This document shows, in pieces, positions 21,218 to 55,217 of a stretch of DNA of 64,000 nt. Numbering within the stretch: position 1 is the stretch's first letter; every line of letters starts with the position of its first letter. The stretch covers positions 1 to 64,000 of the IMG/VR virus record IMGVR_UViG_3300031823_000002. One strand, 5' to 3'. A program made the position numbers and the translations under genes. This stretch comes from a virus. Below the pieces are notes generated by a model, which was not told where the DNA came from, searched no databases, and was given only the letters and a program-made list of their open reading frames with translations.

Positions 21218-22321
21218 ATGGAGTACCACCAGATAGCCAGCATGTTCGAACTGCTTAGCGAGGCGGAGTTACAGGAACTCGCCAGCGATATTAAACAGCA
21301 AGGTCTGCTTCTGCCGGTGATGCTTTTCGAGGGCAAGATTCTGGATGGCCGCAACCGCTACCGAGCCTGCCAGATGGCCGAAGTAGAACCAATATACACA
21401 CAGTTTGAGGGTACGCCGGAAGAAGCGGTTCATCGGGTGTGGAGTCTGAACCGCCCGCGCCGCCACCTAACGTCGGATCAGTCCGCCTGCGCTGACGCAG
21501 TGCGAAACAAGCTGCTGAACTCCTATGCGACGGTGCGGGAAGCGGCGAAGCAGCGGCAGACGGCTGCGCAGGCGGCAAATCTGAAGCGGGGAAATGAGCC
21601 GCCTCCCGGCGGTGGTATTAATATTCCCGCCGGGAAGACTGAAGTAGGCAAAGGAGTTAAGACCGTCGAGGTCCGCGCGAAAGCAGCGGGTACTTGCGCA
21701 AGTTATCTCAGGCTAGCCGACAAGCTGCTGAAAGAGGAGCCGGAGGTATTCGCTCAGGTACAGAAGGGTGAAAAACGACTGAGTCAGGTACGGCGCGAGA
21801 AGGGGGCGGCGAAAATGAGTTTTTCGACGGCGCGAACGAACGGGCGAGCAAAGATAGACATTGTCGCCCGCACACACCAAGACATTATTCGGCTTGCTGA
21901 GAAAGGAAGGTTTCTTAGTAGCAGGGAGATATCCGAGGAAACGGGATATACCTGTGCGAGTCTCGACAAGTTTTTTACTCGTTGCTCATTTGTCCCGTGG
22001 GTCACTGTTCTAAGCCAGCGCAGCGAGAAGAAATTTGTAATCAACGAGGAGCTAAAAAATATTTGCGAGAACCTTGTTCTTCGTCCGGAACTGGCTATTA
22101 TCCGTCCAGAGTTAGGTATCTGTTCAATTTTTGTTCACATGGCTGATTTAGGCCAAGAGATTGCCCGTAGACGACAAGAGGCAAGAGCCGGACGGTCCAA
22201 TTGGAAGCCGCATTCGATCCACGCTCATCAACTGGTTGAATTACTCAACTTTATCGAAGACGAATTCACCCGCTACCGCCAGTTTTCAACCCAGACCCCA
22301 AAAAGGAGGCCAGCATGTTAA
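21218..22321 (+). CDS. ParB-like protein with C-terminal DNA-binding extension
   Basis: 367 residues. Residues 5-75 resemble the ParB/Spo0J nuclease-like fold (LSEAELQELASDIKQQGLLL, ILDGRNRYRACQMA with the DGRNR motif). Residues 75-200 match the helical region of ParB-like phage regulators. The C-terminal 150 residues include ISEETGYTCASLDKFFTRCS, a second helix-turn-helix-like part. Roles could be regulation or DNA partition. It overlaps the next gene by seven bases. Confidence 0.75.
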   Translation: MEYHQIASMFELLSEAELQELASDIKQQGLLLPVMLFEGKILDGRNRYRACQMAEVEPIYTQFEGTPEEAVHRVWSLNRPRRHLTSDQSACADAVRNKLLNSYATVREAAKQRQTAAQAANLKRGNEPPPGGGINIPAGKTEVGKGVKTVEVRAKAAGTCASYLRLADKLLKEEPEVFAQVQKGEKRLSQVRREKGAAKMSFSTARTNGRAKIDIVARTHQDIIRLAEKGRFLSSREISEETGYTCASLDKFFTRCSFVPWVTVLSQRSEKKFVINEELKNICENLVLRPELAIIRPELGICSIFVHMADLGQEIARRRQEARAGRSNWKPHSIHAHQLVELLNFIEDEFTRYRQFSTQTPKRRPAC

Positions 22322-41277: not shown

Positions 41278-42252
41278 TTAGGCCGCTTTCTGCGGGCGGG
41301 GGACAAGTACCCGGTACGCCTTGTGTGCGGCGACCAGCTTCTTCTCCGTGTCTGCGGTGGCGTTCTCCAGCCACGCATCGAGTGCGCGGGCTACAGTCTC
41401 AGCCGCGTCATAGACGGAGCTTGTCACCTTCGGTACAGGAGCGGCAGCAGGGGCAGGAGTATGGGTGGGCTTCTTGCCAGCCTTCCTGTCCTGTGAGGCT
41501 TGGACCTGAGCCTTCGCCCTCTCCGCCGTCTTGCCCTTACCCTTGGCGAGGACAGCGGCGACCTTGACGCGCTTCTTGCCCTTCACCACGGTCGCGCTCT
41601 CAGCGATGATCTTGCGCTGCTCGTCCTTGCTCACCTTCGCCAGTTGCTTCGCAGTGGTGACCTTGATTTCGCCCTTGGTGACGGCTTCCTGTGCTTCGAC
41701 GGCCAACTCTGCCAGTGCAGCGCGATCCTTGACCCACTTCGCAGCGTTCGCCCTCTTTTCGCCCTGCTTCGCCTCGGGGAAATAGATAAGTGCAATCTCT
41801 TCGTCGGACTTCTTGAAGCGTTTACGCAGCAGAGTGATATTCCAGCAGTCGTCCATTGGCGAGGTGCCTACGCGGAAGCGGTTCTCGCTGATAGCCGTGA
41901 TGAGAGCCTCTTCCTCGGACAGAGTCTCGTAGATACCCTCAACCTTAAGAAGCTGCTCTTCGGAGGTTCCCTTGGCGCGGAGCTTCTTGTTAATCAGGTT
42001 GATGGCATGGTAGCGGCAGTAGCCGAAAACCAGAACGGGCTGACCCGCATCGTTCTTGCGGAACTTGACCGGCGTGTCCTGACCTTTAGCCTGAATGTCT
42101 GCGGCCAGAGCTTCAACAGCAGCCTTGACATCAGGGTTGTCGCGCTCGTAACGCCCATTTAGCTGGGGGTCGAGGACAATGTTTTCGGGGTAGTCGGCAA
42201 CGACCAGCGTGCTAGTGCGCTTAGTCGTATCGTTAGAAAAGCTTACGTTCAT
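41278..42252 (-). CDS. ParB-like protein with a basic Ala/Lys-rich tail
   Basis: 324 residues. Residues 25-125 (PDVKAAVEALAADIQAKGQD, PVLVFGYCRYHAINLINKKL) resemble the ParB nuclease-like fold, followed by helical binding regions (EALITAISENRF, ITLLRKRFKKSDEEIA). Residues 225-275 are Lys/Ala/Pro-rich. It could be a DNA-partition or regulatory protein. Two TTGACAC-family promoters lie upstream. Confidence 0.72.
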   Translation of the reverse strand: MNVSFSNDTTKRTSTLVVADYPENIVLDPQLNGRYERDNPDVKAAVEALAADIQAKGQDTPVKFRKNDAGQPVLVFGYCRYHAINLINKKLRAKGTSEEQLLKVEGIYETLSEEEALITAISENRFRVGTSPMDDCWNITLLRKRFKKSDEEIALIYFPEAKQGEKRANAAKWVKDRAALAELAVEAQEAVTKGEIKVTTAKQLAKVSKDEQRKIIAESATVVKGKKRVKVAAVLAKGKGKTAERAKAQVQASQDRKAGKKPTHTPAPAAAPVPKVTSSVYDAAETVARALDAWLENATADTEKKLVAAHKAYRVLVPRPQKAA

Positions 42253-47803: not shown

Positions 47804-49120
47804 TTACCAGCCTACGTACACCGTCTCGCCAAAGGGTGCCTCGCGTTCCAGCGTGGCCAGCCAGAGCACCGGGACTTGCGGTTCAACCTGCGGGAAGATG
47901 CCCAGCAAGTCAGTGATGAAGATCGTGCAAACCGGTTGATTCTCGTCTGCGTCGATTGCCTCAAGCACGGGCCGGAAGTCCGTTCCCCATCCGCCCTTTG
48001 GCTCCCACACCAGCGTGTCGCCACGCTCAAGTCGTTGTACGTGGCAGACTTTCTCGTCTGCGAAGTACAGGGTGACTCCAGCGGGTTCGACCTCGTCCAG
48101 AACCTCCTGCACGATTGCTGCCGCCTTGCCTAGCGCGACTTGATCGATTGATCCAGAGGTATCGATGGCAATGGCCACCTCGCCCATCTCCTTGCTGTGC
48201 CGCTTCGGGAAGAAGTAACCGCTGCCCGCGTAGCGGGGGTTGGGCCTCTGCCAGTCGTAGGACGCTGCGTTGCTCTCTTGCATGAAGCGCAGGACTAAGC
48301 TGTACACGTCCACGCGTGGTTGCAAGGTCTGCTCGAATGCTCGCGTGAGTGCTTCGCCCGTCTCCAGCCCTTGGCCTTTGGCCAGTGCTGAAGTCTGCGC
48401 GACGCGCTCTTTCCACTCGTCCTCTGAGGGTGGGCCGTCGCCTTCGGCGTCACTGTCTAGCGGTGCATCGCGGCACTCACCCAACTCGTCGCCCTCCTCG
48501 TCGCCGTCGCCCTGACCTTCGCCCTCGCCTTCGCCGTCCTCGTCGCCAGACTCCCCGTCGCCCTCGTCCTCGTCTCCCTCTCCGTCCTCGTCGCCTTCTG
48601 GCTCGGACTCGTCGCCTTCTTCGTTCTCGCCAGACTCACCCTTGCCCGGTTCAGGCTTGGGCTTGTCTTGCGGTTCGTCGAATGGCATGTGGTCGTATAT
48701 CCACTCCGCTGATTGACCTTGCTCGTCGCCTTCGGCGTAGTATGCGCCGTCCGGCAATTCGAAACCGAATCCGCGAAGCAGGGTATTAATCGCCTTGTCA
48801 CAAGCAATATTCCAGCGTCGCATATCGCGATTGCCACGCCGCCACGGATGCCCCAACGCAACATGCAGGACTTCATGGGCTACCAGCGCAATCAACCGCT
48901 TCGGAGTCAGGCTTAGGACGAAGTGGGGGTTGAACCCCAGACTCCGCCCGTCCACCCATGCCGTTTTGCAGCGCGGGTCAGCCAGTAGCTTCAGCCCCAT
49001 CGCCAGTGCTCCAAGCTGAAACTGGTCGAGTACCAGCGTCTGGCGTGCCTTCTCAAACCGCGTGACGGCTTGGCCAATGGCCGCGTCCATCGCGGCCTGT
49101 GCCTCTACTCGTGCGCTCAT
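47804..49120 (-). CDS. VWA-like protein with metallopeptidase-type N-terminus (DUF2201)
   Basis: 438 residues. HEVLH at 82-86 with a further His at 91 forms a zinc-protease-like site. Residues 150-225 are an extremely acidic Glu/Gly/Asp linker. The last 150 residues are a VWA-like domain with DTSGS as the metal-binding start and GGWGTDF nearby. It is encoded with a MoxR ATPase and a linker gene, the known MoxR-VWA partnership used for chaperone or complex-remodelling work. Confidence 0.85.
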   Translation of the reverse strand: MSARVEAQAAMDAAIGQAVTRFEKARQTLVLDQFQLGALAMGLKLLADPRCKTAWVDGRSLGFNPHFVLSLTPKRLIALVAHEVLHVALGHPWRRGNRDMRRWNIACDKAINTLLRGFGFELPDGAYYAEGDEQGQSAEWIYDHMPFDEPQDKPKPEPGKGESGENEEGDESEPEGDEDGEGDEDEGDGESGDEDGEGEGEGQGDGDEEGDELGECRDAPLDSDAEGDGPPSEDEWKERVAQTSALAKGQGLETGEALTRAFEQTLQPRVDVYSLVLRFMQESNAASYDWQRPNPRYAGSGYFFPKRHSKEMGEVAIAIDTSGSIDQVALGKAAAIVQEVLDEVEPAGVTLYFADEKVCHVQRLERGDTLVWEPKGGWGTDFRPVLEAIDADENQPVCTIFITDLLGIFPQVEPQVPVLWLATLEREAPFGETVYVGW

Positions 49121-50049
49121 TTCAGCGTGTCCTTTCCAAATGCATTGAGCATGTCATCCATAATGCTCTGTGCTCTCGCGGCAGTTTCCAGCCGCACGTT
49201 TACGTTTTCGCGGAGGATGTCCGGCTCGCTCATGGCGAGTAGCTCGGTCTCGCGCCGGTACTTCTCCAGTGACGCGTCGTCGGTCACGTTCAGGCGGGTG
49301 AGAATGTCGCAGATTTCGCGGGCATTCGTTATCAGGGTGTCCTCGAAACGCTTGTACCCGGACTTCGTGTTCCCCGCCTTGCCCCCCAACGTTTCCTTGA
49401 TGCGGTCAAGGCATTTGTACAGCTTCTTGGCCGCTTCGCCCGTGACCTGCTGCGCCATGTCGCGCATATCAGCTTCTGCGGACTCGCGCAGGACTGCCAG
49501 TTCAGCATCGCCCAGCGTGACGCGGAAGTCAGCGCTCGGCACGGGACGCGGAGTCACTTGCATATCGAAGCGTGCCAAGGCATCGTCTACATTCGGCCAG
49601 ACTGCGTCCTTCGCCAGCCCATTAAGCTGAACCTTCGCGCATGTGACCAACTCGCGCCAGTCAAGCTCCAGATTGCGCCGCAAGCGGTCGTACTCAGCCT
49701 TGAACGTACGCCATTGATCCATGTACGGTTCATAGTTGAGCATGGGCAGGATGTGCCACCCGTCGCGGTTCCACGGCAGGGTGTTTTTGTAGTGCCACTG
49801 GCGCACGGCGGACAGGTGCGATACCAGCGCGTGGTATGCGTTTTGCTCTTCGCCCGCTTCGCGCTGCCGCTCGGTGTATGCCGTCTCAGGCATCAGTCGC
49901 TGCGTAAACTTGCCGGAGCCTTTGGCCGCGCCGTGCTTCTCAATCACAGCTTTGGACTCTGCCTTGTTCTCCATTGAGTCATTCCAGACTGGCAAGCTAG
50001 GATGCACGAGGATGGCTCGCTCGTGCAGGTTCATTATCTGCGTCATCAT
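49117..50049 (-). CDS. Helper protein of the MoxR-VWA module (DUF3150-like)
   Basis: 310 residues, largely helical, with ATGA overlap to the VWA gene. A protein of this size and helical content usually lies between the MoxR and VWA genes in phages; DUF3150 is my best guess, not certain. The longest coiled-coil-like portion is residues 210-300. Confidence 0.65.
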   Translation of the reverse strand: MMTQIMNLHERAILVHPSLPVWNDSMENKAESKAVIEKHGAAKGSGKFTQRLMPETAYTERQREAGEEQNAYHALVSHLSAVRQWHYKNTLPWNRDGWHILPMLNYEPYMDQWRTFKAEYDRLRRNLELDWRELVTCAKVQLNGLAKDAVWPNVDDALARFDMQVTPRPVPSADFRVTLGDAELAVLRESAEADMRDMAQQVTGEAAKKLYKCLDRIKETLGGKAGNTKSGYKRFEDTLITNAREICDILTRLNVTDDASLEKYRRETELLAMSEPDILRENVNVRLETAARAQSIMDDMLNAFGKDTLK

Positions 50050-50116
50050 GATGTGTGGTTACCCCTTCCCGGTAACTGCTTTTGGTGAGTGGCGCGGTTC
50101 CCATGCCGCGCCGATT

Positions 50117-51163
50117 TTAATTTTGCCCCGCCAGAATGTCGGCGTACTTGCCTTGCTGCATACGGATGTATGCGTCCGTCAGGACGACTTCAGGATGCAG
50201 CTTCACAGAGGTCCGCATGATGAGGGTGGAAACCTCGCCGTGCTTCGAATCGAATAGCCTCTCCGTGTACGTTGCGACGGCGGGAAAATTGGTGCGTTTG
50301 GCCACGCGTGCAAGCGTGACGGCTACGGCATACAGTTCACCGGGTGACTTCGGCAAGGCTGCCGTGCGGGGATTCTTGAGGATATCGGCCACGTCTACCA
50401 GCGAACGATGCGCCAGCTTGAATTGCCGGTACATCTGGCCAAACGTTGCGCCCACTGCGCCCTCGATAGAGATGCGCTCGGTCTCAGCGCTCATGCCCCA
50501 TGAGTCGATATGCGAGACGTGCTCCCATGTACGGGCGCAAGGACTATTCGTCAGGTCCGCCGTGGGGGTGAATACGTGGAACGCGTCCGGGTTCAACTTC
50601 AGGAAGGCAATCAACATAGGGCTGATGCCATGCGGCAGCGCGAAATTTTCCAGCCAGTAGTCGAGGTCAGGAATCAGTTTCACGATGGTGACCATGCGCG
50701 ACTTGACCGTTTCCAGCATGCCGCGCACGCCCGCCTTGTGCTGCCGCTCATTCGTGGCTGCAATGAGCGAGACGCACTGCGGCAGCTTGTTATTGTGGAA
50801 AAGGTGCATGGTGGCCTTCTGCACATCCTCATTGCCTTGCGCCAAGTCGTCGAAGAACCATCCTGTATTCCTCGTCGCGGCCAGTGCCAGAGCATGCTCG
50901 CCTATCGGCAGGAAAGCGCCGCCATTGATCGGAGGCATGCCGCGCAGGTCAGGCGGTTCAATGGTTGCCGGGTACGTGGTGAGTGAGTCCCACTTCAAAA
51001 GATCGGTCAGAACATGGTTCACGATTGCGGTCTTGCCAATGCCGGGGTCGCCCGCAATGCATACGGGTTGACGCGCCGGGATAGCCTTCAAAAGTAGTTC
51101 AATCAGTTGCGCCGGTCCCATTGCCGGGACGGGTGTAGCGGTCTGCTGTGCAATTGCTGGCAT
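50117..51163 (-). CDS. MoxR-type AAA+ ATPase
   Basis: 348 residues. Walker A GDPGIGKT at 38-45, Walker B GWFFDDLAQG, sensor region SLIAATNERQHKAGV. MoxR AAA+ proteins act with VWA partners in maturation of protein complexes. First gene of the three-gene module; the leader element lies upstream. Confidence 0.9.
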   Translation of the reverse strand: MPAIAQQTATPVPAMGPAQLIELLLKAIPARQPVCIAGDPGIGKTAIVNHVLTDLLKWDSLTTYPATIEPPDLRGMPPINGGAFLPIGEHALALAATRNTGWFFDDLAQGNEDVQKATMHLFHNNKLPQCVSLIAATNERQHKAGVRGMLETVKSRMVTIVKLIPDLDYWLENFALPHGISPMLIAFLKLNPDAFHVFTPTADLTNSPCARTWEHVSHIDSWGMSAETERISIEGAVGATFGQMYRQFKLAHRSLVDVADILKNPRTAALPKSPGELYAVAVTLARVAKRTNFPAVATYTERLFDSKHGEVSTLIMRTSVKLHPEVVLTDAYIRMQQGKYADILAGQN

Positions 51164-53731: not shown

Positions 53732-53852
53732 ACTGAAGGCGTTTTCCACCCATCAGCCGATTGAGGCCGGGGTGGGCGTGGATGTGGAGCGGGCCTATTG
53801 GCTGATGAGGCTGGTGATGCGGCAGGAGTGGGTAAAGCGGGCGGGACGATGA
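53652..53852 (+). CDS. Hypothetical 66-residue protein
   Basis: GTG start after GAGGTGGATC, within the preceding gene (80-base overlap). Basic N-terminus (VKRLWQRLFPSWVAEIRRES), helical end. ATGA link to the next gene supports it. Confidence 0.6.
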   Translation: MKRLWQRLFPSWVAEIRRESRQRTLDELKAFSTHQPIEAGVGVDVERAYWLMRLVMRQEWVKRAGR

Positions 53853-54124
53853 CCAATAAGGCGCGTGGCGCGAAACCACGACCGGCTCTTCAGCAGGTAG
53901 CCAACGATTCTATTACCGACGCCGAGTGGCTGGTGGCGCTTCTGAAAAATAGCGGCTACTCGCCCTGCCGCGCCATCCATGCCCTGCTGAGCGCCATTGT
54001 CGTGATCACCATCGGGCAGAAGCAGGAAGAGATACTCAGCGAGCCGCTGGATGAACTGGTGGGGCATTTTGCCGCGCTGCGCGAATACGAGATCGAACAC
54101 GGGCCGAAACAACGGGTGCAATGA
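53849..54124 (+). CDS. Hypothetical 91-residue protein before the 18-bp array
   Basis: TDAEWLVALLKNSGYSPCRA then HALLSAIVVITIGQKQEEIL; helical. Its stop lies nine bases before the array starts. No family recognised. Confidence 0.7.
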   Translation: MTNKARGAKPRPALQQVANDSITDAEWLVALLKNSGYSPCRAIHALLSAIVVITIGQKQEEILSEPLDELVGHFAALREYEIEHGPKQRVQ

Positions 54125-54132
54125 TGGAAGTG

Positions 54133-54620
54133 CTTGACAACCATAAATACAGCGAGTGCCAAAACAAGAGAGTGAACCACCAGTGGCGAGCGTACCAGTG
54201 AATGGGAGTGAACCATCATGGGTGAGAGTACCGGAGAAAGTGAGTGAACCATAAACAAAGAGAGTGCCATGGTTCGAGAGTGAACCAAAGCAACTGCGAG
54301 TGCCATTAGATGAAAGTGAACCACGATACTAGCGAGTACCAGAGGTTTTGAGTGAACCGATGAGCATGAGCGTACCAAGAACCGGGAGTGAACCACGGTA
54401 GATGCGAGCACCAGTAAAGTGGAGTGAGCCAAGTCAAGTGTGAGCACCAACTGCTCAAGAGCGAACCAGATCAGGAGCGAGTGCCAATTTAAGTGTGTGA
54501 ACCATCATGGTCGAGCGTGCCAAAGAGAGCGGAGTGTCAGCCAGACCCTTGGTGAGTGCCATGGTAGTGGAGTGAACCCAGTAAGAGATGAGAGTGCCAA
54601 GGATAGCGAGTGAATCAACG
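54133..54620. repeat. Array of about 26 units of 18 bp
   Basis: Units follow N-G-[AC]-G-N-G-N-[AG]-C-C-A plus seven variable bases. Two forms alternate: GAGTGAACCA and GCGAGTGCCA (or GAGCGTACCA). Nineteen successive units from 54133 to 54474 keep an exact 18-base period; later ones show small indels (19, 22 and 19 bases). The variable bases differ in nearly every unit. A leftward open frame across it is split by these indels, so conservation is at the DNA or RNA level. Candidate functions are an origin or partition site built of iterons, or a protein-binding scaffold. Confidence 0.85.
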
Positions 54621-55217
54621 ATGAAGTGCCTGAAGTGTGGACATGAGTGGGAGCCGAAGGTGGAACAGCCAGCGCGGTGCCCCAACTGCAAGACGGCGAC
54701 CTACATGTTCCCTCCGGGCGTGGGCTTCGGCAGGGCCGTGCCCCGCGTCAGCGAAGGGGATCAGGGCGTCTACAACCCGCGTAGGGTGATCACGGAGCCG
54801 AAGGGCTGGAACGATCCGACGCCGCTGGTGATGGTCGAAGAGATGCCGCTGGCGGAGGCGCGGAGGCGCTACCCCGATGCTGCGATCTTCGATCCCGAGC
54901 ATCCGGCGATGGCCGATGAGGTAGCGAACGTCAGCGATGCACTGAGGGGCGAGACCGCCCATCCTGTCGAAGAGGGCGAGGCCCTGTTCGCGCTCGACGA
55001 AAGCAAAGAGCCGGATATGGATGAACTCCGGAAAATTGCTTCAGGTGAGTTGGACCCCACCGGCTACAAGCGCCCGCCTGTGAGAGAGACAGCCGCTGTC
55101 GGGATGTGCGAATACCGCGAGCTTGACCCGGAGTCGAATGAGTGGGTCTACTGTTCGCTGCCGGTGCATGATCCCAAGAAGCAGCGCCATGTGCCCGGAC
55201 GGAGGGAAAGCGCATGA
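54621..55217 (+). CDS. Zinc-ribbon protein, 198 residues
   Basis: CLKCGHEW and RCPNCKTATYM form an N-terminal ribbon (residues 3-28); the rest is Pro/Glu-rich with DPEHPAMADEVANVSDALRG. A second Cys pair lies near the end (GMCEY, YCSLPVHD). The ATG immediately follows the last array unit, with GAGTG as the only possible ribosome site. Confidence 0.75.
   Translation: MKCLKCGHEWEPKVEQPARCPNCKTATYMFPPGVGFGRAVPRVSEGDQGVYNPRRVITEPKGWNDPTPLVMVEEMPLAEARRRYPDAAIFDPEHPAMADEVANVSDALRGETAHPVEEGEALFALDESKEPDMDELRKIASGELDPTGYKRPPVRETAAVGMCEYRELDPESNEWVYCSLPVHDPKKQRHVPGRRESA

What the first reader, a model, noticed from the sequence alone, without database searches (positions are those of the whole stretch)
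54133..54620. Array of about 26 units of 18 bp with alternating core sequences
Nineteen consecutive units keep an exact 18-base period and alternate GAGTGAACCA with GCGAGTGCCA-type cores, while the other seven bases vary. It is non-coding, sits between two genes, and the downstream gene starts at its last unit. The regular period with variable filler suggests a scaffold for an oligomeric DNA-binding protein (partition or origin iterons) or a repeated RNA motif.
Basis: seen in the sequence. Interest (0 to 1): 0.85.

Follow-up and report, generated by a model that had tools for sequence, protein, structure and literature searches.

The report
A virus's remote guide-RNA array (TIGR)
The repeat is a TIGR array: a string of small guide-RNA cassettes that a virus of microbes carries for an RNA-guided DNA-binding protein (TasA) encoded on the other side of its genome; the kind was described in 2025, but the remote location, the roughly 90 guides in all, and the visible swapping of guides between sister viruses are informative.

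Summary
The array is real (54139-54617): 26 repeats of two alternating 10-nt kinds with 8-nt variable fillers. It is not a partition or origin iteron. It is a TIGR array (tandem interspaced guide RNA; Faure et al. 2025, PMC12045711), about 13 dual-spacer guide units. The 121-kb virus record has two larger arrays of the same repeats (about 76 more units) flanking a nuclease-less Nop-domain protein, TasA, 56-64 kb away. TasA matches the solved TasR (phmmer E 8e-15) and TasH proteins, and its model matches their structures (Z 17-18). All 12 other viral contigs found by the array DNA pattern alone also encode TasA. Each unit carries a covarying base pair between successive edge repeats (z = 66), as the TasR structure predicts, and the predicted mature RNA is exactly 36 nt in 72 of 89 units. 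A sister phage (about 97% identical) has the same three array sites, but its spacers are either identical or wholly replaced. I found no targets in its own genome or in other TIGR viruses. Most likely function, inferred: 36-nt tigRNAs are loaded on TasA, which binds competing DNA without cutting it. New member of a known kind, with remote arrays and visible spacer turnover.

The parts
54139..54617 (+). TIGR array: about 13 tigRNA units (5'-truncated edge, then alternating loop and edge repeats with 8-nt spacers)
   Evidence: repeat parse; null parses give no chain
54139..54143 (+). 5'-truncated edge repeat (AACCA) that opens the array
   Evidence: sequence; [quoted passage not shown]
54139..54174 (+). 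first predicted 36-nt tigRNA: AACCA - spacer A TAAATACA - loop GCGAGTGCCA - spacer B AAACAAGA - GAGTG
   Evidence: sequence; the AACCA-to-GAGTG span is exactly 36 nt in 72 of 89 units of the record
54422..54468 (+). edge GAGTGAGCCA (54422) followed by edge GAGCGAACCA (54459): compensatory A-U to G-C change in the pair that closes the tigRNA between them
54608..54617 (+). last, degenerate edge repeat GAGTGAATCA; its GAG lies 10 nt before the next start codon and may act as ribosome-binding site (inference)
   Evidence: sequence
53798..54124 (+). upstream gene of unknown function; stop codon 14 nt before the array
   Evidence: no Pfam or PHROG match
54621..55217 (+). downstream gene, N-terminal CxxC zinc-ribbon-like protein of unknown function
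   Evidence: below Pfam cut-off

Best explanation
The stretch is a TIGR array that encodes about 13 dual-spacer guide RNAs (tigRNAs) for a nuclease-less Tas protein (TasA) encoded 56-64 kb away on the same viral genome. Shown here: the alternating edge (GAGUGAACCA) and loop (GMGMGYRCCA) repeats; constant 36-nt units; a covarying base pair that closes each unit; homology and fold of the Tas protein; co-occurrence of array and tas gene; a conserved array site with replaced spacers in a sister phage. Inferred from the characterised systems: the array is transcribed from the + strand, probably as part of an operon mRNA, and cut within the edges into 36-nt RNAs bound by a TasA dimer. Spacers A and B (8+8 nt) pair with opposite strands of a 16-bp DNA target. 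Without a nuclease domain, TasA would bind, unwind and bend rather than cut, most likely interfering with replication or transcription of competing mobile DNA. Use of the remote array by this TasA is inferred from the identical repeats. The confidence given is for the identity as a TIGR array; the competition role is a much weaker inference (about 0.4).
For: TasA (record 118408-119302): phmmer to TasR 9mty E 8e-15 and TasH E 1e-6; Pfam Transposase_20, the IS110 C-terminal part, and phrog_4285. AlphaFold model pLDDT 84: Foldseek top 10 are all TasR/TasH; VIA Z 18 TasH, 17 TasR, 12.7 IS110. Array DNA pattern found 12 other viral contigs, every one encoding the Tas protein. Covariation edge_k position -4 with edge_k+1 position 4: z 65.8, Watson-Crick in 90-100% of units in most viruses, absent when order is reversed or within one edge. 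Predicted tigRNA 36 nt in 72/89 units although edge spacing varies 35-40. Sister phage G001 has the same site and repeat count; repeats 95% and flanks 98% identical, spacers 70% and bimodal. Family definition from PMC12045711.
Against: No transcript or RNA-processing data. The array is far from tasA; the published survey looked within 5 kb. No promoter-like or terminator-like site was found near it on the + strand. Box D here reads GAG rather than UG. No target was found in the phage itself or in the other TIGR viruses.
Confidence: 0.94

Rival explanations
1. Partition (parS-like) or replication-origin iterons: double-stranded DNA sites bound by an oligomeric protein such as the ParB-like proteins of the window.
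For: Regular period; two ParB-like genes in the window; a local minimum of cumulative GC skew about 1 kb upstream; the TIGR-Tas paper itself reports ParB-like genes in operons with some tasA genes.
Against: About 180 repeats at three sites, all on the + strand next to + strand genes; base-pair covariation between consecutive edges in one order only, which DNA binding sites do not need; cluster around tasA; ParB genes 12-32 kb away and not beside tasA; the skew minimum also coincides with the switch of gene orientation.
Confidence: 0.02
2. Decayed or orphan TIGR array: of TIGR origin but no longer expressed or used at this remote site.
For: Distance from tasA; some degenerate repeats at the 3' end (GAGTGTCAGCCA, GAGTGAACCC, GAGTGAATCA).
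Against: The sister phage keeps the site with the same number of repeats, repeats stay 95% identical while spacers turn over, and the closing pair is kept, with a compensatory pair in this very array. Remote arrays also occur in G007 (36-39 kb from tas) and G009 (about 20-31 kb).
Confidence: 0.05
3. A translated minus-strand repeat protein.
For: One long minus-strand open frame (164 aa), fully open in the sister phage.
Against: Random spacers in the same repeat scaffold give frames as open as this in 43-74% of trials; the larger arrays have 3-10 stops per minus frame and changing frame; the frame runs antisense into the upstream gene.
Confidence: 0.01

Closest known systems
TIGR-TasA systems (Faure et al. 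2025, Science; PMC12045711)
   Same: Alternating edge/loop repeats of 10 nt, dual spacers, 36-nt units, closing pair between edges, CCA box C, solo Nop-domain Tas protein, virus-borne
   Different: An array 56-64 kb from tasA besides the adjacent ones; about 90 units against the usual 5-15; 8-nt spacers; box D reads GAG; arrays run straight into the next gene with no terminator found
TaTasR (RuvC) and SpTasH (HNH) nucleases, PDB 9mty and 9w04/21kl
   Same: Nop-domain fold and sequence homology; TasH arrays also have 8+8-nt spacers
   Different: The protein here lacks the N-terminal nuclease domain
IS110/IS621 bridge-RNA recombinases
   Same: C-terminal Nop-like RNA-binding domain (Pfam Transposase_20; VIA Z 12.7)
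   Different: No DEDD catalytic domain, no transposon ends looked for or seen; array of guides instead of one bridge RNA

Membership tests
TIGR dual-repeat array | two distinct alternating 8-12-nt repeats separated by about 9-nt (8-12) variable spacers | tested here: met
   edge 10-14 nt, loop 10 nt, spacers 8 nt in 165 of 183
TIGR dual-repeat array | unit gives a 36-nt RNA from mid-edge to mid-edge | tested here: inconclusive
   met on sequence: AACCA-to-GAGTG span is 36 nt in 72/89 units; the RNA itself was not observed
TIGR dual-repeat array | edge repeat carries an extra covarying base pair next to the box C/D pair | tested here: met
   edge_k position -4 with edge_k+1 position 4, z 65.8; 10 of 11 virus sequences at 90% or more Watson-Crick; G012 without clear signal, G013 invariant
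TIGR dual-repeat array | box C (CCA) and box D shared by edge and loop | tested here: met
   both repeats start GAG/GNG and end CCA; box D differs from the UG of TasR arrays, which the paper allows
TIGR dual-repeat array | begins with a 5'-truncated and ends with a 3'-truncated edge, then a terminator | tested here: inconclusive
   5'-truncated edge and degenerate last edge present; no terminator found
TIGR dual-repeat array | encoded with a Nop-domain Tas protein | tested here: met
   tasA on the same record and on all 14 other records tested, but 56-64 kb from this array
TasA (solo Nop-domain Tas protein) | Nop-domain fold and homology to TasR/TasH without nuclease domain | tested here: met
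   aligned part starts near residue 26-62 of 297, leaving no room for a RuvC or HNH domain
TIGR-Tas | tigRNA-guided binding of both strands of DNA | not testable with these tools
   needs biochemistry; no genomic target found
parS/origin iterons | DNA sites bound by ParB or Rep | not testable with these tools
   only indirect evidence against

The most novel reading that the evidence does not exclude
In this virus lineage TIGR arrays are dispersed, trans-acting libraries: the same TasA is fed by arrays at distant operons, and the libraries are renewed fast, by gain, loss and exchange of whole edge-to-edge units (breakpoints in the edge repeats) with no dedicated acquisition genes seen, so that two phages 97% identical carry largely different guide sets for unknown competitor DNA.
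Probability: 0.5. Interest if true: 0.78.

Novelty: new member of a known kind. Interest (0 to 1): 0.6.

Why it matters
How TIGR arrays arise, gain spacers and find their natural targets is stated as open in the founding paper. A pair of near-identical phages with 89 and 88 parsed guide units, three matched array sites and largely different spacers gives a direct before/after view of array turnover. Remote arrays show that surveys limited to 5 kb around tas genes undercount guides.

Tried and rejected
Target search: guides (spacer A + 0-2 nt + reverse complement of spacer B) against the phage's own genome and all held TIGR-virus DNA, arrays masked, gave no more near matches than shuffled pairings; and the main test used the wrong pairing, before edge and loop were told apart; one search's alternative pairs and one search use the right one. 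First labelling of edge and loop was reversed; corrected from the array ends, from spacer turnover and from covariation. A correlation inside the loop repeat (positions 6-7) is not seen in G007 and may be CpG avoidance; not pursued. RNA folding of the whole array is no more stable than shuffles (z -0.24), as expected for a pre-tigRNA. Rfam gave only a sub-threshold chance match. No TasA relative among 50,697 phage records by tblastn, nor in GTDB genomes by the peptide-pattern search (limited sensitivity). Exact 16-mer target scans of viral contigs were not run, because I estimate tens of chance hits per guide.

Full report
What was checked. The stretch 54133-54620 holds 26 repeats of two alternating kinds, GAGTGAACCA-like and GCGAGTGCCA-like, with 8-nt variable fillers, preceded by a truncated copy at 54139. 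The same parser finds no chain in Markov copies of the genome or of the array. TRF sees only a fragment of it, because the fillers carry no similarity.

Beyond the window. The window is the first 64 kb of a 121,079-bp virus record. A degenerate pattern finds further copies only at 116.5-120.4 kb, all on the + strand, none for the reversed control pattern. There two long arrays (about 1.9 kb and 1.1 kb) flank an open reading frame of 297 aa at 118408-119302. In all, 89 edge-to-edge units could be parsed in the record, 12 of them in the window, plus the first unit that opens with the truncated edge.

The protein. The 297-aa protein matches Pfam Transposase_20, phrog_4285 and, in the PDB, TasR 9mty at E 8e-15 and TasH at E 1e-6. 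A 12-sequence alignment gave a model with pLDDT 84 and pTM 0.82. Foldseek's ten significant matches are all TasR or TasH chains; VIA-align gives Z 18 and 17 for these, 12.7 for IS110 recombinases and under 7 for everything else. There is no nuclease domain, so it is a TasA.

Family. The TIGR-Tas paper (PMC12045711) defines arrays of alternating 8-12-nt edge and loop repeats with about 9-nt spacers, 36-nt tigRNAs, box C (CCA) and box D, an extra covarying pair in the edge, and Nop-domain Tas proteins mostly in viruses. Independent tests here agree. (1) Searching IMG/VR with the array pattern alone gave 12 other contigs, and all encode the Tas protein at 47-100% identity. (2) Position -4 of each edge covaries with position 4 of the next edge: z 65.8, next best 13.3, with A-U, G-C and U-A pairs; the signal is gone within one edge or in reversed order. 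In the window array the pair GAGTGAGCCA (54422) and GAGCGAACCA (54459) shows the compensatory change. (3) The span from AACCA to the next GAGTG is exactly 36 nt in 72 of 89 units, although edge-to-edge spacing varies from 35 to 40: insertions sit in the middle of the edge, the part processed away.

Edge and loop. The GAGTGAACCA kind is the edge: arrays begin and end with it in truncated or degenerate form, it carries the closing pair, and spacer turnover is more often discordant across it (17 of 55) than across the other repeat (7 of 63).

Sister phage. IMGVR_UViG_3300045012_000066 (122,463 bp) is collinear as a circle, mostly 90-99% identical in the aligned blocks, with a 100% identical TasA. 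It has the same three array sites. At the window site it also has 26 repeats; flanks are 98% identical and repeats 95%, but spacers 70%: ten identical, three with one change, ten essentially unrelated, plus one unit gained and one lost. The larger arrays behave alike. This is turnover by replacement and whole-unit gain or loss, not by point mutation. Assembly error cannot be excluded for metagenome contigs, but repeats of 10 nt are far shorter than usual assembly words (general knowledge).

Remote arrays. The window array is 56-64 kb from tasA. Remote arrays also occur in G007 (36-39 kb) and G009 (about 20-31 kb). The published search took 5 kb on either side of tas genes. All use the same kind of repeats as the adjacent arrays, so trans use by one TasA is likely but not shown.

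Expression. The array sits between two + strand genes, 14 nt after one stop codon and 3 nt before the next start; no promoter-like or terminator-like site was found on the + strand. The arrays at 54.6 and 118.4 kb end so that the GAG of the last edge lies 10 nt before the start codon, so the last repeat may double as ribosome-binding site. This is inference.

Targets. Dual-spacer targets (geometry) are not enriched in its own genome or in other TIGR viruses over shuffled pairings. So self-regulation or targeting of these relatives is not supported; the targets, if any, are elsewhere.

Rivals. Iterons for ParB are disfavoured by the ordered RNA-type covariation, single-strand orientation and tasA linkage. 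Minus-strand translation is explained away by simulation. A dead array is unlikely given the conserved site with renewed spacers and kept pairing.

Verdict. A TIGR array of a virus-borne TasA system: new member of a known kind. The specific interest lies in its remote position, the large guide set and the sister-phage comparison.

Noticed in passing
window 10652-12184 (+) and 8055-8410 (+): TROVE/Ro60-like RNA-binding protein (PF05731 E 9e-14) about 2.2 kb downstream of a cluster of four tRNA genes (Ser, Ser, Glu, Lys).
   Followed up: no
window 21218-22321 (+) and 41278-42252 (-): Two ParB-like proteins (weak Pfam ParB_N; PHROG ParB-like partition), neither adjacent to an array or to tasA.
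   Followed up: partly
window 47804-51163 (-): Three-gene set with a DUF2201 metallopeptidase/VWA protein and an ATPase-like gene (P-loop GDPGIGKT) upstream, about 3 kb before the array.
   Followed up: no
window about 53000: Local minimum of cumulative GC skew where gene orientation switches from - to +; it may mark a divergent promoter region or an origin.
   Followed up: no
L013 (IMGVR_UViG_3300032076_000047), L016, L021: In other viruses TIGR arrays also sit in front of several unrelated genes and around tas; L016 carries a very long, strongly diverged array (about 2 kb).
   Followed up: partly
L011 14159-14482 (record 116160-116483): The stop codon (TGA) of the gene before the second array lies inside its first edge repeat (GAGTGAACCA).
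   Followed up: no
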